A stretch of 64,000 nt of DNA from Blastomyces gilchristii SLH14081 (taxonomy: Eukaryota > Ascomycota > Eurotiomycetes > Onygenales > Ajellomycetaceae), in assembly GCF_000003855.2 (NCBI RefSeq), contig NW_003101674.1:2169042-2233041 (forward strand), written 5' to 3'. Numbering within the stretch: the stretch's first letter is position 1; each line of letters begins with the position of its first letter. This document shows, piece by piece, positions 7,388 through 41,102 of this stretch. The notes beneath the pieces are model-generated. The model ran no database searches and was not told the DNA's origin. It worked only from the letters and a program-made list of their open reading frames with translations. A program made the translations under genes and the position numbers.

Positions 7388-7756
7388 ATTATTATTATTA
7401 TTCTTTCATTATACTCATATGCAAGCGGAGCTTATGATGAGTCCTTGCGTGATGTTAAATACAGGTCAAGTGTTGATTATATAGAAGGAAATACAGGTGT
7501 TGAGACCATGTCAAGATAACAAGAACATAGGAAAATACAAAGGAGTGACAATTAGATACATATGATAATAACTTCCCAGCCCAGAAACATAGAGCAATTC
7601 ATTGAAGTGATTTGTACACCTCTGTATTTATTAGAAACCTGAGGTGCTTGAGTTCCGGATTTAATGTATCCCCTGCGGGTTTTGAACCCACATGCCTTGG
7701 TTTCCCACGCCAAGGCACTACCGGGTGGCCGCATTAACCATTCAGCCACCGGGGCC
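7388..7756 (-). mobile_element. tRNA-derived SINE, copy 1
   Basis: Read on the minus strand: a tRNA-like head with a box-A-like segment (TGGCTGAATGGTTAATGCG) and a box B (GGTTCAAAACC), a body of about 260 bp with no coding, and a tail of repeated TTA/ATA units. It is flanked by a 13-bp direct repeat differing at one base (7,375-7,387 and 7,757-7,769), and the intact site is present in copia B. It is 369 bp long and one of the best-preserved GC-rich patches in the AT-rich block. See the family discussion in the findings. Confidence 0.9.
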
Positions 7757-8610
7757 AACTGAGAAAACTAAGTTTATTAAGAAGATTGAAACTATTATCT
7801 TGAAGATTGAGAGTAATGATATTAACTTACAGAATGTTCACTATATTTCTAATATTACAGTTAATCTACTCTCATTTATAAAGCTTGAAGATCAGAGATT
7901 TCAATTTACATTATCTTTCACTATTCTCTTATTTTTCATTTGCAGAGCTCTGAATAGCATCATTTTTCATACAGTTCAGATTACTTATAACAATATATAC
8001 AGAGTTACTGAATGAGAGTTCAATGAGAATCTCAATTATTTAAGCAAGGCAGTCAGGTATATTACAATGTCTCATGAGTATAATTTTAACTGAAAAGTTG
8101 TTTTTTCTGTAACTGCTATTACTACTGTTAATAACATTGATTCTGCAGTTATGAATATAGACTCTATAAATACAAAGATATCAAAAACTCTTTTGAATTG
8201 ATATTATAATTTTAATCATATTCATACTGATGCTATAATTGCTATAGTCAAGAATTCTCATACTAAAGTCATAATTAAAGATTCTAAGACTAAGTTGTTT
8301 TGCAAAGAATGTGTTAAGACAGATATAATATGAGATTATTTAAAAACACTGATATCTAGATCTATTCAACTCATTGAGAAGGTTTATATTAATCTTGTAG
8401 ATAGTAAATATACATTGAAAGATCTCTCTAATCACTTCTTAAAGTCTCATCAGAGAATTAAATACTGAATACTTATCATCTGTGATGCAACTCACTACTA
8501 TTGAATATATTTTTTAAAGTTCAAGAATGAGACTGTTAAATACTTTGAGTTATAGCTCAGATTTATAAGTAATCTCAGATATACAGTTTCTGCTTTTCTA
8601 CAGACTGATA

Positions 8611-9116
8611 TAGACTGGCCGCCGGGACCATGAATTTTATATTTGATTTCATTTGGTCTGATCTTATACATTTCATGGCGTGAGTCCCGCTAGGACTGAC
8701 TATCAAAAAAACATGTAAAGTGACTATATATCAGATCTTAAAATGAAATCATGACTTGAAAAAAATGAGAAAGTGGTCTTATTTGATCCCATTTAGTCAC
8801 ATTCTTGGCATAAAGTTACTATTTTTAGCCATTTTAAGGTTTTTTTTAGACTACTTTTAATTTTTTAAAAAGTAACACTTTTTGATAACACTCAAATGAG
8901 ATTTAAAGTCATTTAAAGCAATAAAAATAATTTAAATTGAGAAGTGAAAATCATGATCTCATTTGAAAAATGTGATAAGAGTAGACAGTAAGTCTCACTG
9001 AGACAGTATGAGACTACTATCTAATGTTAAAACCGTGTAATGGCATCAGTCGAATTGATAATGAGACTATCAAAAAATCTGGTTCTGGTCTCAGACACGG
9101 TCACACGGTCAGTCTA
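8611..9116. mobile_element. 506-bp hAT-like MITE, copy 1
   Basis: Starts TAGACTGGCCGC and ends with the inverted counterpart of TAGACTGACCGT. It is flanked by a perfect 8-bp direct repeat gactgata (8,603-8,610 and 9,117-9,124). The empty site is visible in copia B. There is no coding capacity. The length is exactly 506 bp, like copies 3 and 4. An 8-bp duplication with short terminal inverted repeats is the pattern of hAT-superfamily non-autonomous elements; that class assignment is inference. Confidence 0.88.
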
Positions 9117-10483
9117 GACTGATATCAATAATGTTTTCCAATTCACATATATACACAAGTTATGAATTCATATAATATCAAATGAGAATCAATGACATCT
9201 TATTCATCATATCAAGATGAAGTTTCTGAATATAAGATCTGCACTATCATGAAACAGGTTAGAGCTGCTCTTTTAAAAGATAATCTCTCTAAGAAGTTTT
9301 GAACAGACATTCTAGAGATAGTGATTATAATAATTGATAATACTCTCATATCTATAATTCTTTACAACTTGAAATTTTAGCCCTCTACTATAGAAACTTC
9401 TGTGATTTCAAGTTCATATAAGATCTCTTGATGTGCACTTATGAACATCTCACTGAATGTGAGACATTTTCACTGATTGAGTGCAAAGGTCTTTATTCAC
9501 TTGCATGAATCTCAGAGACCTGCAGATAAGCTTTCTTCATATGTCAATTTCTATTGTATTATTGAATTCAGTGACATATTGATCTATTGCCTATGAAATT
9601 TCAAATCTGATAAGATTATTATCAGTAGTAATATGAGGTTTCTAATCACTGTAAAATTAAAACCAGTTATTATATCTGTGATACTTATTAATCATATCAC
9701 TGAACTGAAACCTGGTATTTATCTGATTGATAATAAAGATGCTTCTGACATTAATGATTCAAATTCTACATGATTACAGCCCGTGAAATCACTGACTATA
9801 TATACTCTTAGACTGGCCGCTGAGATTATGATTTTACATTTGATTTCATTTAGTCTGATTCTATACATTTCTTGATATGAATCTCGCTGGGACTAGTCAT
9901 TAAAAAAACATGCAAAGTGACTATATATCAGATCTTAAAATGAAATCATGACTTGAAAAAAATAAGAAAGTGATTCTATTTAATCTCATTTAATCTCATT
10001 CTTAGTATAAAGTTACTATTTTTAGACATTTTAAGATTTTCTTTAGACTATTTTTAATTTTTTAAAAAGTAATGCTTTTTGATAACACTCAAATGAGATT
10101 TAAAGTCATTTAAAGCAATAAAAATAATTTAAATTGAGAAGTGAAAATCATGATCTTATTTAGAAAATATGATAAGAGTAGACAGTAAGTCTCACTGAGA
10201 CAGTATGAGACTACTATTATAATATGACAGAACTGAAGTGATGACTAGTTGATAGCATTATATAGAGATAGTTGTTTGAGAAGTCATATAAGTGAGCTTA
10301 ACTATCTTACTTGAATAGTGAGCTCATAGACTACAGAGTTATCATGAGAATATCACAGATACAGTACTTAGTATACTAAGAAGATTGTATGAGAAATACA
10401 GTAACTCTTGTATATATTTCAGTAGAAGAAAAATGAATCACTGACTTCTTTGATAAGAAGCTAGCATCTAACTATTTTATATA

Positions 10484-10858
10484 GCCTCAGTGGCCGAATG
10501 ATTAATGCGGTCACCCGGTAGTGTCTTGACATGGGAAATCAAGATGCATGGGTTTGAAACCTGCAGAGAATACATTAAATTCAGAACTCAAGCACCTCAG
10601 GTTTCTAATAAATACAGAGATGTATAAATCACTTCATGAATTGCTCTATGTTTCTAAGCTGANNNNNNNNNNNNNNNNNNNNNNNNNNNNNNNNNNNNNN
10701 NNNNNNNNNNNNNNNNNNNNNNNNNNNNNNNNNNNNNNNNNNNNNNNNNNNNNNNNNNNNNNCACTTGACCTGTATTTAACATCACGTAAGACTCATTAT
10801 AAGCTCCGCTTGTATATAAGTATAATGAAAGAATAATAATAATAATAATAATAATAAT
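10484..10858 (+). mobile_element. tRNA-derived SINE, copy 2 (contains the assembly gap)
   Basis: The head matches the other SINE copies (box-A-like TGGCCGAATGATTAATGCG; box B mutated to GGTTTGAAACC). The tail is ATA/AAT repeats. It is flanked by a 14-bp direct repeat aactattttatata (10,470-10,483) and aactattctatata (10,859-10,872). It is inserted in the LTR of gypsy 1. A run of 100 N hides the middle; about 103 bases are expected there from copy 3. Confidence 0.87.
10663..10762. other. Assembly gap, 100 N
   Basis: Exactly 100 undetermined bases inside SINE copy 2. Comparison with SINE copy 3 predicts about 103 missing bases, and the LTR length calculation agrees, so little if anything is hidden. 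Confidence 0.97.
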
Positions 10859-11664
10859 AACTATTCTATATAAATAATGAGTGAATACTCTTCTCTTATT
10901 TTATAAGTGAGAATAGTCAGAGTAATACCTCAGTGATATCTTACTATTAAGAAAGAGTAATCTGCTAATCTTATATAGAAGTAAGATTATTATATTTATT
11001 AATTAAATCTTTCTATAATATATCTGAATAATGTCATAGAGTGCTTGAAAATCAGTTTAAATAGTCTGTGAGATAAATGAAATCATCTGCAGAAAAGTAA
11101 TGAGCTGTGCAGAACTATAGCAGAGTCTTAATATAGTCAGAGATATAACAATACTCTTCTCTTTAAGAGTATAGTCTCAATACTCTCAAGATTACTGAAT
11201 TGGAAATTATCTTTATTGTAAAATAACAGTTATCAACTGATTTAACAGCATATATACTGTATATAATATAAAGAAATAGATGAGTTTTTCTACTAACTAT
11301 ATAGATCTTTCTTTCTCATCTCTGTTCAAATCAAACATGTGATAAGTGAGTTTCTTATATATTAATTTAAAATATGAAAAATGTAGTTAATAAGTGACTT
11401 ATAGATCTTTCATTATATTCTGTTCTATGTATGAAATTCTCTGCAAAAGTGATGTATTTTAAAGACAAAGTTAACAGTAGTGACAGGATTTTTTGAAAAG
11501 ATTTTCTCTCTCTATGACTCATTTTTTCTTCCTCTCTTCTCATCTACAATAGTGAGTGTATGAAGACATTATTCTTAAAAGATAATAAGAGACTTATTCT
11601 GACACTTTCTAGTGATTAAATGTCTTTGTGATGCAGCTGCAGTCTCTGTGACTGTTAAGAAAGC

Positions 11665-12000
11665 TCAGTTGAAGACAGAGACAGTGATGTTGACAGACTG
11701 CAAAAGCACTGCTTTTATTATCACATCTTCTTCTTCTTCTTCTTCTTCTTCTACTTCTCTTGCAGTCATGATGGTAATCACTGTATCTAGCAGTGAGATG
11801 TTATCTCTTCTGTCAGTTAGCTTGTCTACACTCAGTCTGTTCTCTACTCTTCTCATCACTGTTGCAACACTGCTCTCTCTCTCAGTCAATACAGTGATAT
11901 ATAACTCTGTGATCATTCAGAGAGAAGCTCAGAGAGAGCTTGATTCTGAAGACAGTAACTCTGAAAAGCTTAATCTATAGTTTCTCTTCTGTGATATATC
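11665..12000 (-). pseudogene. Acidic C-terminal segment of gypsy 1 polyprotein
   Basis: Minus-strand open frame with a run of eight glutamates (about 11,730-11,757) next to an Arg- and Asp-rich stretch (LTDRRDNIS). The same segment, with a shorter Glu run, is in gypsy 2 at 21,853-22,206. It lies after integrase, near the 3' LTR. The plus-strand reading rich in Ser is its shadow. No domain recognised. Confidence 0.55.
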
Positions 12001-13699
12001 TAAGCTCTACTCAGAATACTGCTGAGTTGAGTCTGCAGAGTTCTGCAGTTTCTTTATCTTCTCTCTGTGAGAAGGCTCTGATATAGTCTCTGACTAGCAC
12101 TGTCACTTATCTACACTATACTAAGCAGCTGAAGAAAGAAGAAATCTTATATATTCACTTTTTCTCTTACTTCTGTTATTTTCATTGTACTTGTAACAAT
12201 GACTTCTATCTCTCTGTAAGTATTATCTCACAGAAAGATGTTATATCAGCTCTGATAAGAAGCTCAGATACTCAAGTAGTACAGAGTGAGAGTCTCAGAG
12301 CTTTAAGTATTGATGAATTCTGTCAAAGCTGAGAAGGTCTCTCTTACTTATCTGTAAAAAGAAGATAAAAGTGTGAGTCTCTGAGATGAAAAAACATCTC
12401 AGAATGACTGACTCTAAGAAGAGATCAGCTGACACTACTATTAAAAGTATTATAGAGATTAATTACTGACTGAAGAGAATCTTGCTTCAATTGAAACAGA
12501 TAACTGAGATACTTTGTAAATTAATAAGTTAATACTTTAAGCATCTTTTATACTCTTCTACAGTATACTTCTCTGCAGTGCTGCAATGCTAACTTCTTAA
12601 CAGATAAAGATATCAGTGTTAAAGACTTTAACAGTAAAGAATGAGTTTGATAAGAGTGTGATTATTAATAAGTAGAATTTAATCTCTCTTTTTACTTTTT
12701 CAGTGAGCTGCAGTCTTATTAGAATAGTAGCAGTCTGTGAGTTAATAATATTAATCTTTTATTAATTTTAAATATTTTTTTTCTCTAACTGCTTCAGGAA
12801 TTTTACACTTATATAGTCTTATTAAACTTTTAAAAACTCTTTGAGAGAAAATAGAAGAAGAGTGCTACAGAGTTCATAAGATACTGATTCATCACTGTGA
12901 GATTATCTCTAAAAAAGCTCTTTGAGAAAAAATAAGAAGTCTTAAGTAGTATTTCTTATTCAATGTCTCTGATATATAATAGAACAGTCTCTACTAGTTA
13001 TCTCATAGCTTATAATCTCTTTCTCAGCATTTTTTAAATACTCAAGCAATTTTCATAAATTCTCTGATAATAAATAATCTTCTCATTTTATAAGATATTG
13101 AAGCTTGCTGTAATATATTCATTTATTCAATATTTTCTTCATAAGATATTCAGTATTACTCTTGATCTCAATATTATTCAGCTGAGACAGCTCTGCTCTG
13201 AGATATTACTTATAAAGCTTTAAATAAAAAATGTGAAAAACAAAATGAATTAATTTCAATTCTGAGAATAATTTCAACTTATATATCTACTTACTTATCA
13301 CTCTTATTACTGAGAAAGATTCTAGTCACTACTCACTGAGCTTCTTACACAGTCTCATTATCTTGATATTCTTTGCTAAAAGTAGTACTTAATTCTCTAT
13401 CAAGAACTTTATTGAAAGATGTTTTCAATTATAGTATTTTATCTACTACTTCTGAGCATAGTGAATACTTTTCATCATCTTTTTATGAATTTTATTCAAA
13501 AGTTTCAATCTCACTTTTACTTCTGATACTGAGAGATACTCTGTTCTCTGTATCTATTCAATATTCTAACTGTCTATTCTCTCTTTTGAAATGTTGTCTG
13601 TGACATCACTGAATAATAAAGAATTATATTAATAACAAGTATAGAAAGAAGATACTTTTAAGATTATATTCTTTATATTATTATATATAAATTCAGCAG

Positions 13700-16600
13700 T
13701 CAGAAGATGTTTAAGTCAATTATTCTGATAATATAAATAAAACACTTAAAGATGCTGTTCTAATATCTGATTCTGATATTCAGTCTGATCATCTGTCTGC
13801 AGATGAAATACAGTGCTGAGAAGATATCTTATTATAAGATGATAGTAAAAAGCTGATCAGTATTTACTGATGAAGAGAGATTCTTAATCTATTATCAATG
13901 ATCTCAGAGCACTGTAATTATAAATAATAATATCTAAAAATAGATCAGTCAATTCAGAGACTTTAATCTTTTTATAAATAGAGATATATTTAATCATCTT
14001 CATGAAGCAGTTAATAATAATTAAAATTAAGTCATATTCTTTAACTCTTATTAACTTCAGCAGATTAACTATGAAATTTATTGATAGATTCTATTATAAG
14101 CTTTTTGAAACAGACAGTGATATCAACTCACTATATTACTTATACTATGAGATCTTTATTCTTTGATAGATATTATAAGTTTTAACATACTCTTTGACAT
14201 TTGTCTGAAGCTTGTCTTAAATATATTTACATTTTAGAAGCTTCTCAGTCTTCTCTAACTCAAAGTGCTCTGTATAAGAATTATTATAATGAATTCTTAA
14301 TAACTTCTGACACACTGCTCTGCTATGAGAGATGAAGACTGAATTATTCAGCAGTAGAAGTTTATATTCTTCTAATTATCAGTGACTTGATTTCTTAGCA
14401 GCACTGCTCTGCTCAGAGTCTGTCTCTTTCAAGTTTAAACTGAATTCTTTCTTCTTTAACTTCTGAATTCAAGCTGTAGTAGAGATGTCTCTCTTCTATA
14501 ATTTATTAATAAATTTTAAAAATAGTTAGATTGAAAGATTGTAGATTATTTTATTCTTTATCAATTCAATAATAGTAAGATGTAATATGAGAAGCTTATA
14601 ATCTTTAGTATTAGTTCTCTGTAAGAATCTGAGTTTTCTTTCATCTTCTATACTGAGTTATGCAGCTGTTTTATCAGTGCTGTTTCTGAGCTTCAGAGAA
14701 TTTCAATTCTCTGCAGTCAGCTTCTTCTACAGTAATAACAGAGATTCTTTTATAGAATTCTTCTTTATATTAATGATATTATAATTGAGCTGTTTAAATA
14801 ATATATCAGTGAGATTAAGCTGATCTGAATAGTATCAGATATAGAAATTATACTCTGAAAGCAGCTTCATTTATCTGACTTAATATTCTGTCAAGCTCTC
14901 TATTATTAAGAAGTAACATAGATTTGTATAATTAGTGAGAACTTACACTGAGTACTTACTATTCTGAAGATAATATTATCAGATCTTAAAGAATTTGACA
15001 ATTACTAATATTTCTTAATTATGAGTATTATATCTTCTCTGTATGAGTGATAACTTCTTAAAGAAGAAGATTACTGATCTCTATTCATAGTGTCTTATAG
15101 ACTCTGTGAAAAAGTCTTCTTTTATAGACATTTCATTATCTGTATTCTCAGAGATTATTATTCTCTGATTCTTTCAACATTGAAAGATCTTCAGTATTAA
15201 CTGTGAAAAGATTTCACAGACTTCATTCTCAGATACATCAGTCTCACACTGACTGAGTAAGTTGAGATTAAAGTGATTCAGTATTATAATATCTGTAAAA
15301 GCTTTTTTTAATTTTACAAATATTTACACAGTATCTTGAGTGAGAATAAATAATCTTATTTTTCTATCTTTTATACTTCTCTTTAACAGATCTGTAAGAG
15401 AAGCAGTAATCTATGAATATATATAGATGAATTATCTGTAGAAATTCATAAATTCTAGAAATATTTACATCTCACAGTATATCTGTGATACTGACTAGTT
15501 CTTAATAACAGAGACTCAGCTTCTGTTCATTGAAATGTCATTCATCTTAATAATATAATCTAAGAAATCAATTTTCTGCATGTAGAACAAGCATTTTTCA
15601 GTGTTTATATAGAGTTAATACTGTCTCAAGTGACTCAATACTTCTTGAATATAAGTATCATGTTCTTTCTCTGTTTTTGAGAAGATTAGAATGTTATTCA
15701 AGTATACTATACAGGAAATGTTGACAAGGCCTCACAGTATCTCATTTATATAGATCTGAAAGATGACTGAAGTGTTACAGAGATTAAAAGATAAAACAAG
15801 ATATTTAAAATTACTGTACTTAGTATAAAAAGTCATTTTTCAAATATTATCTTTATTAACTCTGATTCTATAATAGACATTCTATATATTAATCTTTGAG
15901 AATATTCTTGCTTCAGATAATTGATTAATCATCTCATTAATTAATAATAATGAATAGTAATTCTTAATCATCATCTTATTAAGATCTCTGTAGTCTATGC
16001 ATAGACATTGTCTACTGTTCTTCTTAAGTATAAAGAGTATAGATGTCTCTGCTGAACTCTTTGATAAATATATTCAGTTCTTTAATTACACTTTCTCAAG
16101 ATATTTACACAGAATATTCAATTTCTTTACAGACAAGTTATAAAGAAGTCTGTATAACACTGTTACATTATCTTTAAGATGAATCTTATATTATATTTTA
16201 ATATTAGAAAACTTCACTGCTTCTCTTTCTAAAAAGACATTCTTATAATCTGTAAAGAGACATTGTATATATTCATCTTCAATAATGAATACTACTGCTA
16301 GTCTTGTAGTAAGAGTGATAACTTCTTCATCTATCTTTAAGTCTCAGTTATCTACTACATAGTATATCAACTCTATCTTTTTCTCAAGATTCTTTCAATG
16401 AAACTCTTCAGATTTCTCTATCACTGTCTCTTTATTAGTAAGATAGTATTATCACATCTGAGTAACTCAGTCAATGAGAGAATTGTTTTCTCTCAATCAC
16501 AGAAGATCTAGAATGATATTCTTATCTATGATATTAACTATGTGAAGAAGCAGACTGCTTTTCTTAAAGATTTCTTCTAAGTCTGTGATTATATACTTTG

Positions 16601-17300
16601 CTTGAATTATGTCAAAACAGTGATATTTTATTTTATCAGTAAATTTCATATAATTTAACAGATCTATCCTCTTTCAACTCTTTATTAAAGAAAAGAAATA
16701 GAATATAAAGTTAATATTTATTCTGAAGTTGAGTAGATATCTCACTGATATCTTCTTATTCAGAGTATTTATTATAATTATAATATAAACTTGAAGATAT
16801 GAGAATTATTAATTCTTTATTTCTTTCTCTTCTTTATCTTCTATGAATACATTTATTAGAAGAGAAGTTAACTTTAAGAAGATATCTTCTCAGTTTCTTC
16901 TCTTCTTTGATTTCTTACAATTACTAGTATAGTGATTATCCGCTCTGCAGTTAAAACAGAGATCTATATCAAATCTTTTTTAATATTTCTTTATAGTGAG
17001 TGAAGAATCAGAATATTTAAAATTCTTCTTTACTTTCTCTACACTAGAGCTGTCACAGTACTGTTTAGATTCTGTTATTGATTACTTAGAAGAGATCTTA
17101 TTAACCTTTTTCTTAAAGTATTAATTATTCAAATAGATTTAGAAAGCTAAGTTAACAAGCTCAGTATAATTAATTAATGAACTCTAATACTGTGATATTA
17201 TTGTCTGCATCTTGTGAGTCAGCTTCATAAAATAAAGCTGTATCTTTAATTGATTCAAATTATCAGTCAATTTCTCTCAATATTCTTCAAATCTTGTATT
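13700..17300 (-). pseudogene. Gypsy 1 gag-pol remnants
   Basis: On the minus strand the zinc knuckle reads CFNCRADNHYTSNC (16,917-16,959). The reverse-transcriptase core reads VYLNNILIFSKTEKEHDTY (about 15,640-15,710), where the YLDD box has become YLNN, and continues to LYINTEKCLFY and IDFLDYII. The integrase core lies at about 13,890-14,090, parallel to the open piece in gypsy 2. All frames carry stops that fit TGG-to-TGA and CAG-to-TAG changes. Confidence 0.85.
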
Positions 17301-17738
17301 GAAATTGAAAGAATTCTCATCATTTTATTGATATAATGAGTTGAACTACTGTACTGCTGTGAAGCCGTAGTTGCAGTGATCTTCAATTTGATTCAGTAGA
17401 AAGTGCTTGAATTCATATGAGTATTAAACTGACTCGGGTTAAGGCGGAATTTCCGTTCAAGAGTACAGGTGAAGCTTAATCTCTCTATCTTCATGATAGA
17501 TGTAAGTGTGTAGAGGCCGCAGCAGTGACAGAGCGGTTGAAGAACTTATATTAAAGTGTACAATAGATTCAGAAATGTCAGATTTCTGCTAAGATAGAGA
17601 TATACACACTCTAGAGAATGATGTGAAGTTTCTCTCAGAGAGTGAGATCAGATCAGTTTCAGTGCAGATGTATAAAATTATATCAGTCTGTTAGAGCTCA
17701 ACTGATTCAAACTTGTAATCAGATTAAGTGATTTGAAT

Positions 17739-18282
17739 TATAATATAACAGAACTGAAGTAGTAACTAGTTAGCAGTGTTATATAGAGATAGTTGTTTGA
17801 GAAGCTGTATAAGTGAGCTTAACTATCTTGTTTGAATAGTGAGCTTGTAGACTATAGAGTTATCATGAGAATATCACAGATACAGTACTTAGTATACTAA
17901 GAAGATTGTATAAGAAATGCAGTAACTCTCATATATATTTCAGTAGAAGAAAAACAAATCACTGACTTCTTTAATAAGAAGCTAGTATCTAGCTATTCTA
18001 TATAGATAATGAGCAGATACTCTTCTCTTATTTCATAAGTAAGAATAGCTGAAGTAATACCTTAGCAGCATCTTACTGTTAAGAAAGAGTAATCTGCTGA
18101 CCTTATATAGAAGTGAGATTCTTATATTCTTCAATCAGATCTTTCTATAATATATCTGAATGATGTTATAGAGTGGTTGAAAACTGATTTGAACAGCCTG
18201 CAGAATGAATAAAATTATCTGCAGAGAAGTAATGAGTCATGCGGAACCGCAGCGGGGCCTTGGCGCGGCCAGAGGCGTGATA
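17739..18282 (-). repeat. Gypsy 1 5' LTR (in element orientation)
   Basis: 544 bp. On the minus strand it begins TATCACGCC (TGTCACGCT in gypsy 2) and ends in a mutated GTTACA. The last 45 bases on the plus strand (about 18,238-18,282) remain GC-rich with many CpG sites, in contrast to the rest of the LTR. Confidence 0.9.
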
Positions 18283-18284
18283 AC

Positions 18285-27440: not shown

Positions 27441-30400
27441 ATGAGTGATACGCCTGTTACTTCAGAGTTCAGCTCAAGGCTCAGAATCACATGCTTCACT
27501 AGATGACTCATTGATAGAATGATCACTCATTATGAGAAGACTCCTGACTTGCAAGATGAGACTGAGATCAGTTTTCATCAGAGTATGAAATTTGATGATG
27601 AGATAACAAAGAAGCTTCAGAACAAAGAAAAGCAGAGTCAATATTCATCTGCAGAATCTGTTCATTTCAACTCATCAAATTCTTCACCATTTCTCACCTC
27701 TGAAATGCTGACTTTTAATGATGATTCAAATCAACCTATCTATTGCATCACAGGCAATCTTATGAATTTTATACAGATGATACTATGAAATCAAATGACT
27801 GCAGCTGAAATCACTCAACATCTCACTACATCTGTCTCTGCACAAAGAGACACTACAAGAGATGAGTTGCAGAAATACCAGAAGAAAGTCAAATATACAC
27901 TAGATATTAAATCAGTGACCACATTTGATGACTCTAATTATAAAGCCTGATGTATTGATATGTTGACTGATGTGAAAGTTATTGATGAAACTGACATTCT
28001 ATTGAGAACTCAATGAGAATTCTCTTTTACACATTATATCAACTCTGAGAAGTGAAGAATCTGTTCTAAGTCTCTATATAGATGTATGCTATTGAGTCTT
28101 GTTGGAAACATTTGAATCACTATTAAAATCTTGAAAGCTGACAATGCTGCAGCTCTGTGAGACAAGATCAATGTTGAATATATAATATCACTGACAGAAG
28201 AATGAGTTAATGTCTTCAAGAAATTGACAAAATTACAAGTTAAGAAGAATGATTATCTTACTTTTCAGAGATATTTTCACTATCTTATTGCCTGTTACAA
28301 AGAGCTCTGTCAGAGCACTGAGAATGTATATCATGATCTTTTTCTCAACAACCTACAAGATTATCAAAGACTGTTTGTTAAGACATGTTTGAATGAGTTT
28401 TTCTTCACTGGTCAGGGACTCATTGTCAACATTGATATCAATGATTTGATGAAGCAACTGATCAATCATACATTTAAGAAGATCATCACTGAGTGAAAAA
28501 AGCAGCCTCAGGCCGATTCTGTGACTGTGAAAAAGGACAAAGATAAGGACAAAGATGAGAATAAAAGCACATCTGTATGAAAGTGCACTCACTGCAGAAG
28601 ACATGAACATACTGTTGACAGGTGTTTCATCTTACACTCTGATAAAAAGAAAAAGAAGGATGACAAGAAGAATGACAAGAAGGGAAGAGAAGAAGAATGA
28701 CTTGATAAGTTCTCAATCAGCAGCAAATACAGCAATTACAAAGATTGAGTTCTATTTCTCTTTCACAGTCACTGGAAAATCATTCTCTAGATCTTGATAT
28801 TTGAACACATGTGCAAGCCTGAATATGATGAGTGAGCTTCATTCTTTTTCAAACATCAAACCTTTTAATGATAATATCTCTGTCAATTCTGTGACTGGAG
28901 GAACTGGGTTTGTTAAGAAGATTGAGACTGTCACCTTGAAGATTGAGAGTGATGATGTTAACTTGCAGAATGTTCACTATATTTCTAATATTACAGTTAA
29001 TCTGCTCTCATTTGCAAAGCTTGAAGATCAGAGATTCTGATTTACATTGTCTTTCACTATTCTCTCATTTTTCATTTGCAGAGCCCTGAACAGCATTATT
29101 TTTCATGCAGTTTGAACTGCTCAGAACAACATATATAAGATTGATGAACAGGAGTTCAATGAGGATCTCAATCATCTGAACAAGGCAGTCAAGTATATTA
29201 CAATATCTCACAAGTACAATTTTGACTGAAAAGTTGATCTTTCTGTAACTGCTGCTACTACTGTTAATAACATTGATTCTGCGGACGCGAAAACACAGAA
29301 TACAAGAATATCAAAGACTCTTTTGAACTGGCACTGTGACCTCAGTCACATTCACACTGATGCTATAATTACTATGGCCAAGAATTCTCATACTGAAGTC
29401 ACAATTAAAGATTCTAAGACTAAGTTCTTTTGCAAGGAATGTATCAAGGCAGGTATGACATGAGATTATTCAAAAACACTGATGCCTAGATCTATTCAAT
29501 TCATTGAGAAGATTCATATTGACCTTGCAGATGACAGATGTACATTGAAAGACCTCTCTAATCATCTCTTAGAGTTCTGCCAGAGAATCAAATACTGAAT
29601 GCTTATCATCTGTGATGTGACTTGCTACTGTTGAGTATATTTTTTAAAGTTCAAGAATGAGGCTGTTCAATACTTTGAGTTGTGGCTCAGATTCATGAGT
29701 AATCTTGAGTATACAGTTTCTACTTTTCTATGAACTGATATTGATAGTGTTTTCTAATCCACACATATACACACAGTTATGAATTCATATGATATCAAAT
29801 GAGAACTAACAGCATCACATTCATCACATCAGAATGATGTTTCTGAACATGAAATCTGCACTATTATGAAATAAGTTAGAGCTGCTCTTTTGAAAGATAA
29901 TCTCTCTAAGAAGTTCTGAACAGATGTTCTAGAGACAGTGATTGTAATAATTAATAATACTTTTATATCTACAGTTCTTTACAACTCAAAATTTTGATCC
30001 TCTACTGCAGAGACTTCTGTGATTTCAAGTTCACATAAGATTTCTTGATATGCACTTATGAATATCTCACTGAATATGAGACATTTTCACTGATTGAGTG
30101 CAGAGGTTTTTATTCACTTGCATGAATCTCAGCAGCCTGTGAATAAGCTTTCTTCATATACTGATTTCTATCACATTATTGAATTCAGTAGCACATCAAT
30201 ATATCACCTATGACATTCTGAATCTGATAAGATTATTGTCAGTAGTGACATGAGGTTCTCAATCACTGAAAAACTGATTGTTACATCTGTGAAACTCATT
30301 AATCATATTATTAAACTGAAGCCTGATATTCATCTAGTTAATGATGAAGATGCTCTCAACATTGATAATCTGAATTCTACATGATTGCAGCCTGTGAAAT

Positions 30401-32082: not shown

Positions 32083-32165
32083 TTTTACATTTGTATTTGG
32101 TTTTGCCAGACTATCTTGATAATTTGAGTGTTTTTGTATGTGATTCTTGTTATCTCAAGGGGGGG

Positions 32166-32277
32166 TGTTGACCCTTACAGCTGTTGCGGTTAGTGATCTC
32201 ACTAGATCACGTGACCCACCACTATATTATGTTCTTGTAGATAGATCTATCAATACACAATCTTAAACTATTCTACA
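32166..32277 (+). repeat. Copia B 3' LTR (112 bp)
   Basis: Begins TGTTGACCC after a run of G and ends CTACA. It is nearly identical to the 5' LTR; the differences are mostly C-to-T or G-to-A. It is followed by the gatat duplication at 32,278-32,282. Confidence 0.93.
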
Positions 32278-33076
32278 GATATCTTCTCAGTTTCTTTTCT
32301 TCTTCAGTTTCTTATAATTACTAGTATAGTGATTATCAGCTCTGTAGTTAAAATAGAGATCTTTATTAAATCTTTTTTAATATTTCTTTATAATAAATAA
32401 AGAATTAGAATACTTGAAATTCTTCTTTACTTTCTCTGTACTGAAGCTTTAACAGCACTGTTTAAATTTTATTATTAATTATTTAGAAGAGATCTTATTA
32501 ATCTTTTTCTTAGAGAATTAATTATTTAAATAGATCTGAGAAGTCAGATTAATAAGCTTAGTATAATTAATTAATAAGCTCTGATACTGTGATATTATTA
32601 TTCATATCTTATAAGTCAGCTTTGTGAGATAAAGCTGTGTTTTTAATTAATTTAAATTATCAGTGAATTTTTCTCAATATTCTTCAAATCTTGTATTGAA
32701 ATCAGAAGAATTCTTATCATCTCATTAATATAATAAGTTAAATTACAGCACTGCTGTGAAGCTGCAGTTACAGTAATCTTCAATTTAATTCAGTAGAAAG
32801 TTCTTGAATTCTTCTTAAGTTATTATAATATTGATATACTCAAGCTCTCTCTTCTTAATAGCTTAAGTAGTTGCAGAGATATCTTCAAGAAGGTTGACAG
32901 TGTATATTACTTATATCTTATAAGTATTATACTGACTTAAGTTAAGATGAAATTTTCATTCAAGAATATAGATAAAGCTATGAAATTCAGATAATATATT
33001 TTCTTTATATCTCAGAGAATCTCTGATCTTAATCTCTCTATCTTTATAATAGATATAGATGTGTAGAGACTGTAAC

Positions 33077-33334
33077 TGTAAGAAATCCCGCTTCTCGCGA
33101 ATTCTTTACCTCTATTTCTATCTCTTGTATAATCAATAGAGTTAGCGGCCCTTGACTACACACAACTATATAGACTGAAGTTTGTGAATACTATTCATAA
33201 CTCAGCTTGAATGCTATTATACATTTAATCTCTATATTTTATCTTTCTACTGTGAATACTTCTAGTAGTTAACAGTATATATCATGTCAAGCTGCAAATA
33301 TCTGAATAATCATCTGCAAGCACTTATTCTTACA
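33077..33334 (+). repeat. Gypsy 3 5' LTR (258 bp)
   Basis: Begins TGTAAGAAATCCCGC and ends TTATTCTTACA. The first 30 bases keep CpG sites (CCCGC, CGCG), whereas the corresponding bases of the 3' LTR are mutated. Confidence 0.9.
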
Positions 33335-33366
33335 TTTCAAGCTCAGTCAGTCAGTAACTGCCTGTT

Positions 33367-34440
33367 ATGACTGAAAGAACTAGAAACTTATATACTTCAA
33401 TCTCTGTGAACTCTACTGCAGATACTCAGAAGCAGTCATCTGAATCATGAATAACTCTTATAAAAGAAGTCTCAGAGAACTTATTAATTACTTACAGAAT
33501 ATTATTCTCTGCATCTATAACAGAGAAACTCTTTGAACTCACAAATAAATCAATCTCAGTGAAGAACATTCTTGAATATCTTCTACAGAATCAAGCTATT
33601 TTTCTACAAGAAATGCTTACTATCTGTAAACACTCTTGAACTGAGTCTCTAGACATGATCTTCAGAGATACCTATGAACTGAAAAGAAACTTTCTTAAGC
33701 TATAATTACTTAAGATCACTTATCAAATCACAATCTATAAAAGCTTTTATAAGTTTGTATTTAAAATTGACTCATAAGTCTGACTGTGTGATATGAAAGA
33801 TGAAGAAGCTATTATCTATACAATGACAGATCTCTACTATACTGAAGTCAAGAACTGACTGAATTATCTAGAGAATAATTATAAGAGATCTCACTGATCT
33901 GTTCTCAAGATCTATCTAGAGAATAAGTTAAGAGACTCTATGAACTGAACAGAGAATATCTGAGCTGCAATCATTAATATTAGAAAAAGAGATAAGAAAT
34001 CTGATAAAGACTACTCACAGTACTTTATAAAATTATGATATAAATTGAAATCTGTGAAAACAGAGCTCTGAAACAAGATCTGAATAATGATATTTATAAA
34101 GAGACTGAATAAAGACATGCAGAACAAGCTTATTAAGTAAGACTCTAAGCTCTTAACTCTGAAGAAACTGATAACTCTTATTCATCACTTACAGATTACT
34201 GTGAGAGTCATAGATCTGTGAAGAGTGAATCACTGACTAGCTCTGTAAGAGTCAGAACAACAGAGAATAGATTTATCAGAAAAAGATGATAAGATATAGA
34301 GAGATTCATGTCTGACTGCTGAGTAGAGAGAGAGAGCTTTATAAGCTTCTGTAAACAGAGTGTATAATAGAGAGATTAAGAAAAAGAGACTCTGCTTTAT
34401 CTATTCTAAATCAGAACATCTTTATATAAACTGTCTGAAT
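33367..34440 (+). pseudogene. Gypsy 3 gag with damaged zinc knuckle
   Basis: An ATG at 33,367, 32 bases after the LTR, opens a frame that reads as a gag protein when TGA stops are taken as Trp (for example YFIKLWYKLKSVKTEL). It ends near a zinc knuckle at 34,393-34,434 reading CFIYSKSEHLYINC, in which the second Cys has become Tyr. Confidence 0.8.
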
Positions 34441-34849
34441 AAATTAAAATAGAAATTTAAGAAGTCATGAACAGAGTTAGTAACAGTCTTTTTAAGAGTC
34501 TTGAAGCTGATATCTGAATCTGTTACTTCTCTGATGAAAATACTTACTTATAGAGAGAGACTGTGCTGTGATACTACTACTCTGTAAGTATGAAAAGTAT
34601 TGATAAACTCAGAATCTCAGGTCACTGTAGTGTCTCTAAAGCTCACAGAGTGAATAAGCTGAATAATGAAAACTGAGAATCTGCTCTTATAATAAGCAGA
34701 GTATGAGAACTCAGATCTAAGAGCTGAGAGACTTACAAGAGTTATCTTTGAATTATAAGATCTCTTCAGAATCTGAAGAAGATTTACAGAAACTGTGATT
34801 ATTACAGACATCATAGATAACATGTACTTGAGACTTATATAACTTTAAA

Positions 34850-37800
34850 GACACAATCTGTATATAGCTGTCTATAAGTCAGGTTTATACTTCTGATCAG
34901 TATTGACAAACTTACTTATAAAGATAGAATCAGTTAATGCTGTAGAGTTAATTAGAGAAGACAAGCTCATCTATATAATAACTTTATAAATATCTGAGAA
35001 CTTCATTGTCATGAAAACTGAGCTTCAGATATCAGAGAAATACTGAGATTTCATAGAGATATTCAGTTCAGTAAAGATAGCTGAGCTTTCTTCTTACTAT
35101 GAGAAGAATCTGATAATAGATTTAATAGAAAAATAGAAACTCTTCTAAGAATCAATCTATAAGCTCTTTCATTATGAGACAGAGATCTTATAAGCCTATA
35201 TAAAAAAGAATCTAAAGAATGACTTTATTTAATCTTCATAGATTTCTGCAGAAGCCTCTGTGATATTCATGAAGAAGAAGAATGAAGATCTCAGATTATA
35301 TATAAACTACTGTAATCTAAACTTTAAGATAATAAAGAGTTACTATTCTCTGTCTCTGATTAAGAATGTAATTAACTGTCTCATAGAAGCTGTTATATTC
35401 ATATAACTGAATATAATCAATATATATATACAGCTGTGAATACAGTCTGAGAATGAATGAAAGACTGTCTTTAGAACTGTACTGAGATTGTTTAAATATT
35501 TAGTAATGTCTTTTGATCTGACTAATATCTCTACAGCATTTCAGTCTTTTATTAATAAAATACTTCATATATATCTGAATGTCTTTGTAATAATATATCT
35601 GAATGATGTGATAATGTACTCTGTAAAGAAGAAAGAACATACTAAGTATATACAAAGTGTATTAAAGGTCTTAGATGAGACAGAACTATATATTAAGCTT
35701 ATAAAGTACAACTTCAGTATCTGTCAGATTAATTTTCTAGAATATATAATTATTACAGATAATATTCAGATGAAATCTTCACAGATTAAGACTATTCTAT
35801 CATGACTAAAGCTAACTAGTATTTATAAGATTCAGATCTTTCTGAGCTTTGTGAATTTCTATAGATAATTTATCTTTGTATTTATAAGAATCTTCTTAAC
35901 TCTTACAGATATGCTGAAGAGTGAAAATAAGAAGAAGTTATTTTATAAATAAAGAATGAAAAGATTATTAAGAAGAGAGAGTTGTAAGAACTTTCTTATC
36001 TCAGAAGCTTATAAGATCTTTATAAGATTAAAATAAATATTTATGAATACAGTGATACTGTTTCACTTTGATTTCTTACTCTTAATCAGATTGAAGACAG
36101 ATATCTTTTTCTTTATAATTTCAGAAATAGTCTTATAACTACAGTTAAATGAGAACTGAGTTTCAGTGATCTTTTTCTCATAGAAGATACAATCTGTGAA
36201 GATTAACTATGATATTTATAATCAGAAGCTTCTTATAATAGTGAAATTCTTCTGTCACTGATATTACTACTTTAAGAGCCTTGTAATAGTAATTACTATT
36301 AGAACTGATTATAACTGCTTACAATAGTTTACTTCAATCAAGAAACTTTTACAGTGATAGATTTACTAAGCTCAGAGACTGAGTAAGTTCTGATTTAAGA
36401 TAGAATATATTAAGAAAATTAAGAATTCAGCAGATAGACTCTCTCACAGATCAGACTATATTAAGAAGATCAGAATAACAGATATAGAGAGATTAGAGAA
36501 GACAGAAAAGCTTCACAGAATACTTGAACTAAGTGTTATAAAGAGATTGACTGAAGAGTCTCTTAATCTCTTATAAAAGAAGAACGCCCCAGTGACCGAA
36601 TGATTAATGCGGCCACCTGGTAGTGCCTTGGCGTGGGAAACCAAGGCGCGTGGGTTCGAAACCCGCAGGGGATACATTAAATCCGGAACTCAAGCACCTC
36701 AGGTTTCTAATAAATACAGAGGTGTACAAATCACTCCAATGAATCGCTCTATGTTCCTGGGCTGGGAAGTTATTATTGCATGTATCTAATTGTCACTCCT
36801 TTGTATTTTCCTATGTTCTTATTATCTTGGCGTGATCTCAACACCTGTATTTCCTCCTGTATAACTAACACTTGACCTGTATTTAACATCACGCAAGGAC
36901 TCATCATAAGCTCCGCTTGCATATGAGTATAATGAAAGAATAATAATAATAATAAATCTTATAAAAGAAGAGAGAAGAGAGAGAGAAGAAGTCTGTATAA
37001 CTACTCTTTATAATATTGAGAGTTAACACTCTGAGAATCTCTGTGAGAATTCTTGAAGAGAGTATCTATAATCTGAAGAGTTTGTGAGCTTTGAGAAGCA
37101 CTGTGAAAGATCTGATGTAAGAGAAAACAGAGTATAAGTCTTTGTAAGATCTTCTATTCAGATTATCTGAACTACAACTGAAGAATGAATATACTTAGTA
37201 TATTTAAAAACTACTCATAGCAGAGATCAATCCTGCAGAAATAAAGAATTAAAGAGACTTAAATAATCTCTTATAAAGAGAGAGCTGAATTTATATATCT
37301 ATGAATAAGTTTCTATGTATAAAACTTATTAAAAGATATTATAACTCTTTTCTAGCAGATCATTTTACAGATACTAGAACTTATAAGTTACTTATAAGAA
37401 AATACTTCTAATCAAAGATATAAGAACTTATAAAGAAGATAGTGAATTCTTGTACTATTTATCAGAGTTTATAAGTAGTGCAGTTCAGATTATATAAAGA
37501 ACTTACTTCTCTACTCATTCTGCAGAAACCTTGAGAATAGCTAGAAATAAATACTCTTATAAGTCTCTCTGAAAGTAAGAACATATATGATGCCTGCTTT
37601 AACAGTGTACTGATAATAGTGAATTACTTTATCAAGATAACACACTTTATACTTATCTGTAAGAACTTGAAGTTAAAGAATTTAACTTATATCTTTATCT
37701 GCAATGTGATCTGATTGTATGAATTATCTATAAATATTATCTCAGATAGAGAATTAATCTTCACAGAGAAGTTCTGATCTGATCTGATAACTATACTAAA

Positions 37801-38760
37801 GATCTTATAAGATTTAAGTATAGCTTTTCATTAACAGATAGATGATCAGATAGAATATCTGATAAGTATATTAAAATAGTATCTGCAGTACTTTGTTAAT
37901 TATAATCAGAATAACTGAGTATATTGATTATCACTTATAAAGTTCATATATAATAACTCAAAGCATGTCAGTACAGATAAAATCTCTTTTAAGATACTCA
38001 CTGAGACTTATCTGTAAATGATCTTGATAGATCTGTAAGAGTACACTATAGAGTGTAATAATATCTGTGAACAGACTGAGAGAATTCAGAATATTCAGAA
38101 GAAAGTCTGTGAATTCTTGAGAAAGACTTAAGAGTATTAAAAGAGATACTATAACTTCAAGTATATTATAAAGAGTTTTAAGAAAGATAATAGAGTCTGA
38201 CTGAGTCTAGAAAACATTATTATATAAAGATCTAGTAAGAAACTGAATCTCTTATAGATAGAGTCTTATAAGATTATAAAGAAAGTTAGCTCACAGTTCT
38301 ATAAATTGAAACTGTTATCTAAATTATAGATATATAATATTTTTCATATCTCTTTACTCTGTAAATATAAGAAATTCTTAGAAGAGAATTCTGTAACTCA
38401 TCACTCTGTTCACAAAATACTAAAGAGTAAAAGAGAATATCAGATTAAAGAAATTATTAACTCAGAGAAGTAAGATTATAAGCTCTAATTTAAGATTCAG
38501 TGATAAGAGTATTCTGATAAGATAAATAAGTTTACTTAAGAATTATCTGAGTAGATAAGACATCTGCAGAAGCTGAGACATGACTTTTATATTATGAATT
38601 CTGATAAGTCAGAATAATATAATCTTCACTAAGAATCTGATTATAACAAAGATATTAACACTGTTATTTATAAACTCTAATCTATAAGATGATGAGTTTC
38701 TACTGAAATGAATAGTTCACAGTGTATATAAAGAGAAGAAGAAATCATACTCTTATTAAA
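34850..38760 (+). pseudogene. Gypsy 3 pol: reverse transcriptase, RNase H, integrase
   Basis: The open reverse-transcriptase piece at 35,488-35,805 reads YLVMSFDLTNISTAFQSFIN, then IIYLNDVIMYS (YLDD changed to YLND), then FLEYIIITDNIQM. RNase H reads YDIYNQKLLIIVKF near 36,205. After SINE3 the integrase resumes. It has ISDRELIFTEKF near 37,740, DDQIEYL near 37,845, then NYNQNNWVYWLSLIKFIYNNSKHVSTD with Trp codons restored mentally (about 37,900-37,970). The C-terminal YKLKL and IYNIFHISLL follow near 38,300-38,350. All recognisable as Ty3/gypsy, all broken. Confidence 0.88.
36586..36956 (+). mobile_element. tRNA-derived SINE, copy 3 (best preserved)
   Basis: 371 bp. The head keeps a box-A-like TGACCGAATGATTAATGCGG (36,592-36,611) and a perfect box B GGTTCGAAACC (36,653-36,663). 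An inverted pair GCCTTGG/CCAAGGC around 36,625-36,647 could form the anticodon arm. The tail is AATAATAAT. It is flanked by a 14-bp direct repeat tcttataaaagaag (36,569-36,582 and 36,957-36,970). Inserted in the pol region of gypsy 3. Confidence 0.9.
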
Positions 38761-40459
38761 GTTAAAAAATAAGAAAATAAAAACAGAACTGTGAACATGA
38801 CTTAGAAATTAATAAAGAAAAAATAAAGAAAACTTATACTCATATTCTTAATACTTATAATATTCAATTCTCTCATAACTATTAATTTTCTTCTTCAAAG
38901 AAGCAGAGAGTATTATATCTGTGATACAGATAATTATTACATTTAATATAAAGACTGTCAGAAATGCACAGACTTCAGAGAAGCTGAATATTAGAGTATA
39001 TATAGTTGTAGCAGAATCTTAAGAGCTGACTATCTATATATATAATCAGATATCTCTTATAAAGCTGTGTTCACTTTCTCAGTTATACTGAAGTATTCAG
39101 CTCAGAAATAATTAAGATACAGAGAGAGAGCTTATCTGTTCAGATTAACTTCTATTATAAATTTATAATATTTATATTATCTTGATTACTCAGATTTTAC
39201 AGGTATCTGAGAACTTATCTCTCATTAATAATAAGATTGCAGAAATGTACTGCAGTGTAAGAATTATTGATAGAGAATCTAGATATATTTGTATATATCT
39301 GATCAGAGATTATATAAACAGAGAGAGAGTAATCACAGATCTGCAGAGCTGTAGAAGACACTGATAACACTGAGAGCTTTACAAGAACTATTAGCTAGAA
39401 TCTGTAAGAAATTACTTATAAAGAGACTTACAGTAAAGAGTGAGACTACACTGCTTAAAGTCAGAGACTGATCTGAGAGAGATATGAAGTTAGTCACTGA
39501 TCTGAAGATCAGATGCAGTGACAGAGCTGAGAGAAATAAAGACACTATTATAAGTGATAATATTTCTGCTTTATCAGCTGATAAAAAGTAATTAAAGAAG
39601 TTATAAAGATACTTACAAGAAGCTCAGTAATAGTCAGATATTATTTATAAAGATATTAAAATTAAAAAAAATTTTATTCTTAAGAAGTTCTTGAATCAAT
39701 ATACAGATATTGTTAGAAACACTCTCTCTCTATTATCTAAGTGAAAATACTTTACAGATGAATAAGAATACTCACAGTTTATAAGAATAAAAGCTGTTAT
39801 AAAAAAAGAGAAAAGAAGATGAGATTCTATAGATAAATCTGAGATATTTATACTACTTTAAAAAGATTTACTTACACTATAAGTGATTTCATAAAACAGT
39901 CAGATCACTCTAGTAAATAAAGAGTGATTATAAATTACAGATCTGAATCTTTCTATATAATTATAAAAAGTAATTACAGACTGTGAATATCTTGATTCTA
40001 CAATTCTATAGAGTTGATAAAAGAATGAAAAATTCCTCACAATTCTATAGTATCAAAGAACAATGATTTATAAGAATGAGTAAAAGATTAACTTATAAAT
40101 ACTTCTCTTTGATAAGAGTAATCTTATAAAGAGTGATTTATCTATGAGATAAATCTGTATAATAATTATATAAGAATCTTATAAAAATAGTTAAGAGTCA
40201 ACTGAAACTCTTCTATATAAAAGATATAAGATGAATCTGTATAATAGTCAGAGAAGAATCTGTAGATTATAAAGAACTTCACAGAATAAGAAACTGAGTA
40301 ATAGACTCTTTTCTCTTCACAGTAACAAGGAATTTTTTCTCACTGAGATTTTTTATAGATATACAGAGTTTTTAGTAAGTATCACTGCAGTGCTAAGCTG
40401 ATTCTATAAAGTCACTCAGTGAAAGGCTTCACAGACAAAGCCTTAGAGAGGGAAGAGTA
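38761..40459 (+). other. Gypsy 3 region between integrase and 3' LTR, no recognised domain
   Basis: About 1.7 kb of element sequence beyond the last pol motif. Short open pieces occur (39,182-39,364 plus; 39,333-39,545 minus) and two purine-biased stretches look coding on the plus strand, but I recognise no protein. It could be an extra ORF, a long 3' untranslated region, or an unrecognised old insertion. Confidence 0.5.
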
Positions 40460-41102
40460 TGTAAGAAATCTACCCCAGTGACTGAATAGTTAATGTGGCC
40501 ACCTGGTAGCGCCTTGGCGTGGGAAACCAAGGCACGTGGGTTTGAAACCCGCAGGGAATACATTAAATCTGGAACTTAAGCACCTCAGATTTCTAATAAA
40601 TACAGAGGTGTATAAATCACTTCAATGAATCACTCTATATTTCTGAGCTGAGAAGTTATTATTATATGTATCTAATTATCACTTCTTTGTATTTTTCTAT
40701 GTTCTTATTATCTTGATATGATCTCAACACCTGTATTTCCTTCTGTATAATTAACACTTGACCTGTATTTAACATCACGCAAGAACTCATTATAAGCTTC
40801 ACTTGTATATGAGTATAATGAAAGAATAATAATAATAATAATAATATAAGAAATCTTACTTCTTACAGATTCTTTACTTCTATTTCTATCTCTTGCATAA
40901 CTAATAGAGTTAGCAGCTCTTAACTACACACAACTATATAGACTGAAGTTTGTGAATACTATTCACAACTCAGCTTAAATACTATTATACATTTAATTTC
41001 TATATTTTATCTTTCTACTGTGAATACTTCTAGTAGTTAACAGTACATATCACATCAAGCTGCAAACACTTAAATAATCACCTGCGAGCACTTATTCTTA
41101 CA
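40460..41102 (+). repeat. Gypsy 3 3' LTR, split by SINE4
   Basis: Starts TGTAAGAAATC at 40,460; SINE4 lies 12 bases in. The remainder (40,846-41,102) aligns to the 5' LTR. Removing SINE4 and one duplication gives 258 bp. Confidence 0.9.
40473..40845 (+). mobile_element. tRNA-derived SINE, copy 4
   Basis: 373 bp. The head has box-A-like TGACTGAATAGTTAATGTGG and a mutated box B GGTTTGAAACC. The tail is AATAATAAT. It is flanked by about 12 bp of duplicated LTR sequence (40,461-40,472 gtaagaaatcta and 40,846-40,857 ataagaaatctt, differences fitting C-to-T). It sits in the gypsy 3 LTR. Confidence 0.88.

What the first reader, a model, noticed from the sequence alone, without database searches (positions are those of the whole stretch)
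7388..40845. A tRNA-derived SINE family with four copies and a trinucleotide tail
Copies at 7,388-7,756 (-), 10,484-10,858 (+), 36,586-36,956 (+) and 40,473-40,845 (+) share a tRNA-like head with Pol III box A and box B, a roughly 260-bp body with no coding, and an ATA/AAT repeat tail instead of poly-A. Each has its own 12-14 bp target duplication, and three unoccupied sites are visible in sister elements (copia B, gypsy 1 5' LTR, gypsy 3 5' LTR). SINEs are uncommon in fungi. The head resembles a class II (Ser/Leu-like) tRNA, with a GCCTTGG/CCAAGGC arm. The LINE that mobilises it should share its 3' end.
Basis: partly seen in the sequence, partly recalled or inferred. Interest (0 to 1): 0.75.

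Follow-up and report, generated by a model that had tools for sequence, protein, structure and literature searches.

The report
Fungal SINE and its partner LINE
The window holds four copies of a common short jumping element of a fungus, and also a copy of the longer element that very probably moves it: the two end in an RNA hairpin of the same shape built from different but matching letters.

Summary
All four copies belong to one tRNA-derived SINE family of about 370 bp with a box A, a box B, a non-coding body and an (AAT)n tail. A tail pattern has 1,046 matches in the 74.8-Mb own genome, reversed control 0. 35 of 35 copies checked have target duplications of 10 bp or more; flanks paired across copies give 4%. 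Empty sites exist for copies 1, 2 and 4.

Such a LINE is in the window: a 5'-truncated copy at about 1,161-4,927 (-), with its own 12-bp duplication. Its family has RT and RNase H, and an endonuclease-like piece below the Pfam cut-off.

SINE and LINE share only about the last 40 nt. Folded alone, each gives the same two-part hairpin. They differ at 13 of 30 hairpin bases: 12 are compensatory changes in 6 of 11 pairs, 1 is in the loop. This is one contrast between two groups.

LINE/SINE pairs with shared 3' stem-loops are known, also in fungi. This is a new, abundant and clear member. Mobilisation by this LINE is inferred, not shown.

The parts
7388..7755 (-). SINE copy 1 with (AAT)5 tail; duplication TAGTTYTCTCAGTTG on both sides
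   Evidence: empty site at window 28,705-29,090
10484..10858 (+). SINE copy 2 with (AAT)9 tail, body interrupted by 100 N (10,663-10,762)
   Evidence: empty sites at 17,808, 20,903 and 41,392 (the first looked at)
36586..36956 (+). SINE copy 3, query for the genome search
40472..40845 (+). SINE copy 4 with (AAT)7 tail
   Evidence: empty site in L033 and L015 (L033 looked at)
36586..36675 (+). tRNA-like head of copy 3 (box A, class-II-like arm, box B)
   Evidence: scored on L003 and on the family majority sequence
36899..36938 (+). SINE 3' two-part hairpin plus ATAATGAAAG just before the AAT tail
1161..4927 (-). Partner LINE, 5'-truncated copy with many stops; RT and RNase H part of the protein, 3' UTR and (AAT)6 tail
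   Evidence: 93% over 3,564 bp to L069, 93% over 3,279 bp to L040; fragmented frames
1179..1218 (-). LINE 3' two-part hairpin plus ATAATTGAAG, same shape as that of the SINE
1149..1160 (-). Target duplication of the LINE, 3' side (GTGAAATTCAGT)
4928..4941 (-). Target duplication of the LINE, 5' side (ATGTGAAATTCAGT)

Best explanation
A tRNA-derived SINE family. RNA polymerase III transcribes it from the internal boxes in the head (inferred). Its RNA is taken up by the reverse transcriptase of an abundant RT-RNase H LINE (with a probable endonuclease) of the same genome (inferred). The enzyme recognises the 3' end: a two-part hairpin (6-bp outer stem, CA/CAU internal loop, 5-bp inner stem, UCY triloop), then AUAAU.RAAG and AAU repeats, and it primes from a nicked target, leaving duplications of some 10-20 bp (inferred). 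Shown: shared 3' end, hairpin shape by prediction, compensatory stems, tail unit, duplications, copy numbers, insertion into other repeats including a copy of the LINE itself. Inferred: transcription, recognition and mobilisation.
For: SINE family: 1,015 body matches and 1,046 tail matches, controls 0. Duplications: 35 of 35 copies with 10 bp or more (10-21 bp as measured, 1-2 mismatches allowed), against 4.1% of flank pairs from different copies. Empty sites for three copies. LINE: RT 61.5 bits and RNase H 30.5 bits, both over the Pfam cut-offs; LINE 3' end pattern 2,101 matches, control 0; LINE 3' end of L069 aligns to SINE 343-369. Hairpin: the MFE fold of each alone has the same shape; 11 of 11 pairs in both reference sequences, 6 with changes on both sides, 13 differences in 30 nt; 278 of 2,000,000 random sets of 13 substitutions keep 11 pairs, and 46 of 500,000 reshufflings of the SINE's 3' arms do. 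On 12 aligned copies picked by me (8 distinct) 95.5% of cells pair, against 20-47% with slid partners; covariation score 0.519, against at most 0.088 slid and 0 of 500 shuffles. 0 of 5,000 shuffles of either end give the exact shape, 5 and 10 a looser one. Ten tail matches without a listed body match were fetched: 9 are near full-length SINEs, the tenth (fetched too short) matches SINE 274-370. The LINE's duplication is 12 bp exact. A SINE sits inside a LINE copy with a 13-bp duplication in L126.
Against: No transcript, activity or binding data. The SINE 3' hairpin is not unusually stable for its composition: z -1.2 (41 nt) and -0.3 (56 nt), 25 and 69 of 200 shuffles as good. The covariation is one contrast between two groups (SINEs against LINEs), so copies within a group are not independent support; two of five measures do not exceed the shuffles (pairs with double change 6, reached by 79 of 500; pair types 7, reached by 383 of 500). 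Of 11 fetched tails with other letters in the 3' outer arm, 10 have lost at least one outer pair and only L112 keeps six (with a G-U); four of the 10 are LINE copies with the same change, so that position need not pair. 36 of 46 single SINE copies fold into a two-part hairpin by a loose criterion, 10 do not. The endonuclease piece scores 23.3 bits, below the Pfam cut-off of 27.4. The tRNA head is below the Rfam cut-off.
Confidence: 0.87

Rival explanations
1. The SINE took its 3' end from, and is moved by, a different LINE (sub)family that has the SINE's own stem letters; the shared shape with the present LINE only reflects common descent.
For: 12 of 13 differences lie in stems, so the two 3' ends have been apart for long. 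The RT search scored only 150 of 3,909 candidates, so a rare LINE family could be missed.
Against: Of 10 fetched SINE-type hairpins without a listed body match, 9 were near full-length SINEs and the tenth matched the SINE's last 97 nt. 11 of 11 tails with other stem letters, in the two letter classes searched with exact flanks, were mutated SINE or LINE copies. All five LINE RT loci examined (L040, L065, L069, L114, L115) belong to one family, 89-99% alike.
Confidence: 0.1
2. Non-autonomous LTR element with a tRNA-like promoter (TRIMp3, Helenus type) rather than a SINE.
For: tRNA-like sequence in a short fungal repeat; Helenus is reported from fungi (PMC10886601, abstract).
Against: No terminal repeats seen in the 370-bp unit; duplications are 10-21 bp as measured, not 5 bp; the 3' end is an AAT repeat.
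Confidence: 0.01
3. The shared hairpin is convergence or chance, and the SINE is recognised by its AAT tail and the short stretch before it alone.
For: The AAT tail and TATAAT.RAAG are shared and could suffice; the hairpin of the SINE alone is not significantly stable; 10 of 11 tails with altered outer arm lost a pair.
Against: Same geometry in aligned columns with 6 double changes, 278 of 2,000,000 by chance; slid-partner control.
Confidence: 0.05

Closest known systems
AfuSINE2-1a with the LINE I-1_AF (Tad clade), Aspergillus fumigatus (PMC5063351, passages and section with Table 1, part 1 of 2, read)
   Same: tRNA-derived SINE of 370 bp, trinucleotide tail, 3' end similar to the 3' UTR of a fungal LINE (Tad clade). 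Folded here, its 3' end also gives a two-part hairpin with 5-bp inner stem and 3-nt loop (one sequence, MFE only).
   Different: ACT tail, an estimated 4 copies, Arg-like head, shared segment given as positions 210-335; I did not test its whole length for similarity to this SINE.
Mg-SINE with MgL/MGR583 (Magnaporthe) and SINE2-1_BG with Tad1-24_BG (Blumeria) (PMC3747384, table passage read)
   Same: Fungal tRNA-SINEs listed with a partner LINE.
   Different: Other species; their 3' ends were not available to compare here.
Stringent-type L1/SINE pairs of monocots (PMC3747384, passages read)
   Same: Shared 3' hairpin with compensatory stem changes, conserved UCU loop and conserved 3' flank.
   Different: L1 clade, plant; here an RT-RNase H LINE in a fungus, with AAT tail.
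ZfL2-1/ZfL2-2 and UnaL2, LINEs of zebrafish and eel (PMC4176376, passages read)
   Same: 3' stem-loop needed for retrotransposition; in ZfL2-1 and ZfL2-2 the loop is decisive while the stem can be exchanged.
   Different: Vertebrate LINEs, experimentally shown; here only sequence evidence.

Membership tests
tRNA-derived SINE | tRNA-like head with pol III box A and box B | tested here: met
   Box A 0 and box B 1 mismatch; full-length but sub-threshold Rfam tRNA alignment, 13.2 against 29 bits; no tRNA called by ARAGORN in the window
tRNA-derived SINE | short, non-coding, dispersed in many copies | tested here: met
   370 bp, longest ATG frame 60 aa; 1,015 and 1,046 matches
tRNA-derived SINE | variable-length target duplications and empty sites | tested here: met
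   35 of 35 copies; empty sites for copies 1, 2, 4, none found for copy 3
tRNA-derived SINE | transcribed by RNA polymerase III | not testable with these tools
   no expression data
Stringent-type LINE/SINE pair | SINE shares its 3' end with a LINE of the same genome | tested here: met
[quoted passage not shown]
   only predicted shape and compensatory changes seen
Tad1-clade LINE | APE endonuclease, RT and RNase H in one protein (recalled) | tested here: inconclusive
   RT and RNase H over cut-off, endonuclease piece below it, from two copies with stops between the pieces; listed relatives show RT with endonuclease (P0161, P0175, P0201) or RT with RNase H, none all three
Tad1-clade LINE | groups with Tad1 in an RT tree | not tested
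   no named Tad1 sequence in hand; the clade name is a guess from host and domain order
Helenus / TRIMp3 | two LTRs and 4-5 bp duplications | tested here: not met
   no terminal repeats seen in the unit, duplications 10-21 bp as measured

The most novel reading that the evidence does not exclude
The pair is a natural stem-swap: the fungal LINE's reverse transcriptase reads the hairpin's geometry, its unpaired bases (CA, UCY, CAU, AUAAU.RAAG) and the AAU repeats, but not its stem letters, so SINE and LINE stems have been rewritten pair by pair while staying interchangeable for the enzyme.
Probability: 0.45. Interest if true: 0.55.

Novelty: new member of a known kind. Interest (0 to 1): 0.42.

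Why it matters
It gives a fungal SINE/LINE pair with over a thousand SINE matches and about two thousand LINE 3' ends in one genome. The shared 3' module is cut down to about 40 nt, and six of eleven base pairs have been exchanged. That makes the question of shape against sequence in LINE recognition directly testable in a fungal system.

Tried and rejected
An H-type pseudoknot at the SINE 3' end (GCAAG/CTTGC crossing ACTCAT/ATGAGT) was my first idea (note). It was dropped, because both ends fold as a nested two-part hairpin in aligned columns; that program cannot predict pseudoknots, so it is unsupported rather than disproved.

An extra LINE or SINE family with other stems was sought with two tail-anchored patterns with exact flanks: 4 and 7 places. 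All 11 were mutated SINE or LINE copies. Stem letters in other classes were not searched. The L039 tail (3,319-3,358, -) shares about 50 bp with the LINE end and has unrelated sequence upstream; it was not resolved.

ARAGORN found no tRNA in the window. Rfam gave two matches in the window at E up to 1, both snoRNA models below their cut-offs. A parent tRNA was sought among 40 of the 60 tRNA matches (none from contig C75), Leu and Ser best, none decisive; one search scored only 63 of 4,237 candidates. Six pattern matches were only looked at.

Species: not identified. The best named hits of a neighbouring protein, among the 120 of 1,030 listed, are Aspergillus alliaceus (73%) and Trichophyton equinum (76% over 86%), so a Eurotiomycete-like ascomycete is a guess. 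My passing guess of Blastomyces (note) has no support from the calls.

Copies examined in detail are those in hand: 34, 35 and 46 near full-length copies, taken by best match, as first listed on contig 1 or fetched for odd tails, not at random. Truncated copies, copy 2 of the window (N run), L001 (copy 3 again) and, L027 (overlaps L028) were dropped. The 12 rows were picked by me.

Full report
The four copies. They are one family: copies 1 and 4 are 94% and 91% identical to copy 3, and the two readable parts of copy 2 are 87% and 94%. Copy 2 holds 100 N. In the own genome (G000, 74.8 Mb, 75 contigs) the DNA search scored 40 of 1,161 first-look candidates and listed 41 matches. A 34-place body pattern that tolerates C/T and G/A has 1,015 matches with up to 2 mismatches, and a 35-place tail pattern has 1,046; the reversed controls have 0. 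The two patterns find partly different copies, so the family is probably somewhat larger.

Anatomy. A majority sequence from 34 near full-length copies is 370 bp. Its head has box A with no mismatch and box B with one (box letters recalled). It aligns end to end with the Rfam tRNA model but scores 13.2 bits, cut-off 29; two unrelated models score 16.9 and 16.8, also below their cut-offs. Among 40 own tRNA genes the best scores against shuffled heads are two Leu-AAG genes (z 8.0) and a Ser-GCT gene (7.0), followed by Leu-CAG, Ser-CGA and a Gln gene. The majority sequence has no frame over 60 aa from an ATG and one T4 run. Among the tails of four or more AAT units listed, SINE tails run from 15 to 54 nt.

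Insertion. The four copies in the window have duplications of 13-16 bp with one mismatch. Of 35 copies in hand, 35 have a duplication of 10 bp or more (10-21 bp; one or two mismatches allowed, tail letters may extend it), against 4.1% of flank pairs taken from different copies. Joined flanks find empty sites for copy 1 (window 28,705-29,090), copy 2 (17,808, 20,903, 41,392) and copy 4 (L033, L015); three of these junctions were looked at letter by letter. None was found for copy 3. In L126 a SINE sits inside a copy of the LINE described below, with a 13-bp duplication.

Age. The 34 copies lie 1.4% to 20% from the majority sequence, and the closest of 10 young copies differ by 0.8%. 712 of 870 differences are C>T or G>A. 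By context the mutated share is CpG 24%, CpC 20%, CpA 11%, CpT 2%, a RIP-like load. So the family has moved over a long time and fairly recently; present activity is not shown.

The partner LINE. The RT search scored 150 of 3,909 candidates; most matches are about 470 bp (probably gypsy, not tested), and a class of about 740 bp has longer frames. L069, one of the latter, has RT (61.5 bits) and RNase H (30.5 bits), both over the Pfam cut-offs. In L040 of the same family an upstream piece matches an endonuclease model at 23.3 bits, below its cut-off of 27.4. Relatives in the protein database show RT with endonuclease or RT with RNase H. The LINE's 3' UTR ends in an AAT repeat, and its last 27 nt match SINE 343-369. 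A copy lies in the window on the minus strand, 5'-truncated at 4,927, tail at 1,178-1,161, with the duplication GTGAAATTCAGT on both sides. The LINE 3' end pattern has 2,101 matches, control 0.

The shared 3' module. Folded separately, the SINE and LINE ends give the same shape, ((((((..(((((...)))))...)))))) (the LINE outer stem can extend by one or two pairs), just upstream of ATAAT.RAAG(AAT)n. Over these 30 nt the two reference sequences differ at 13 places. Twelve are the two sides of six base pairs, all kept as Watson-Crick pairs; one is in the triloop (UCC against UCU). Unpaired CA and CAU are identical. Random sets of 13 substitutions on the LINE hairpin keep all 11 pairs in 278 of 2,000,000 trials. 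On 12 aligned copies picked by me (8 distinct), 95.5% of cells pair, against 20-47% when the partners are slid; the covariation score is 0.519, against at most 0.088 for slid versions and none of 500 shuffles; but two of the five measures do not exceed the shuffles (79 and 383 of 500 reach them). RNAalifold on the same alignment returns this structure. Of 5,000 shuffles of each end, none gives the exact shape and 5 (SINE) and 10 (LINE) a looser one.

Cautions on the hairpin. This is one contrast between two groups. The SINE hairpin is not unusually stable (z -1.2 and -0.3). Of 46 single SINE copies, 36 fold into a two-part hairpin by a loose criterion. Of 11 tails fetched for altered letters in the 3' outer arm, 10 have lost at least one outer pair, four of them LINE copies with the same change. 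Most such copies may be decayed, but the shared change suggests that this pair is not indispensable for copying.

Are there other elements with this end? Ten SINE-type tails without a listed body match were fetched: nine are near full-length SINEs, and the tenth, fetched too short, matches the SINE's last 97 nt. Eleven tails with other stem letters, in two letter classes searched with exact flanks, were mutated SINE or LINE copies. One tail (L039) remains unresolved. So these searches show two stem types, one per element.

Mechanism. Best supported is pol III transcription from the head, recognition of the 3' hairpin and tail by the LINE protein, and target-primed reverse transcription. All three are inferred. 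Recognition by shape agrees with zebrafish LINEs, for which PMC4176376 (passages read) reports that the stem-loop is needed, that exchanging the stem leaves about half the activity in one element, and that exchanging the loop strongly reduces it.

Known relatives. Fungal pairs are in print: Mg-SINE/MgL and SINE2-1_BG/Tad1-24_BG are tabulated (PMC3747384, table passage), and AfuSINE2-1a/I-1_AF has an ACT trinucleotide tail (PMC5063351, passages and Table 1). PMC5135761 (passages) states that a 3' stem-loop in LINE and SINE that share a 3' end was found for Tad1 in fungi, citing two works that I did not read. Compensatory changes with a conserved UCU loop are described for monocot L1/SINE pairs (PMC3747384). 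Six listings (titles and starts of abstracts) showed me none on compensatory stems in a fungal pair, but most papers of subscription journals are absent, so I claim no priority. The 3' end of AfuSINE2-1a, folded here, also gives a two-part hairpin with 5-bp inner stem and 3-nt loop, a lead only.

Verdict: observation confirmed, interpretation supported, prediction of the LINE met within the window. A new member of a known kind, of moderate interest because of the clear stem exchange.

Noticed in passing
SINE copies, 34 in hand: RIP-like C>T load with context CpG 24%, CpC 20%, CpA 11%, CpT 2%, not the CpA preference that I recall for Neurospora.
   Followed up: partly
window 10,663-10,762: Run of exactly 100 N inside SINE copy 2, probably an assembly gap.
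   Followed up: no
protein P0121: The closest listed relative (60% over 89%) of the fungal LINE RT is filed as a Clostridioides difficile protein, probably contamination of that record.
   Followed up: no
AfuSINE2-1a 3' end (PMC5063351 Table 1): Folds into a hairpin plus a two-part hairpin with 3-nt loop before its ACT repeats, a layout like that of this LINE.
   Followed up: partly
L116-L119: Four LINE copies share ACCTCT in place of ACATCT, leaving one outer-stem pair unpaired.
   Followed up: partly
L039:3319-3358 (-): A LINE-type tail of about 50 bp with unrelated sequence upstream: a very short truncated copy or another element.
   Followed up: no
L122; G000:C6:2729920-2730713: Two SINEs, or a SINE and a SINE fragment, one behind the other (hairpins 120 nt apart in L122; for C6).
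   Followed up: no
G000:C75: 11 of the 60 tRNA matches lie on this contig, probably the mitochondrial genome.
   Followed up: no
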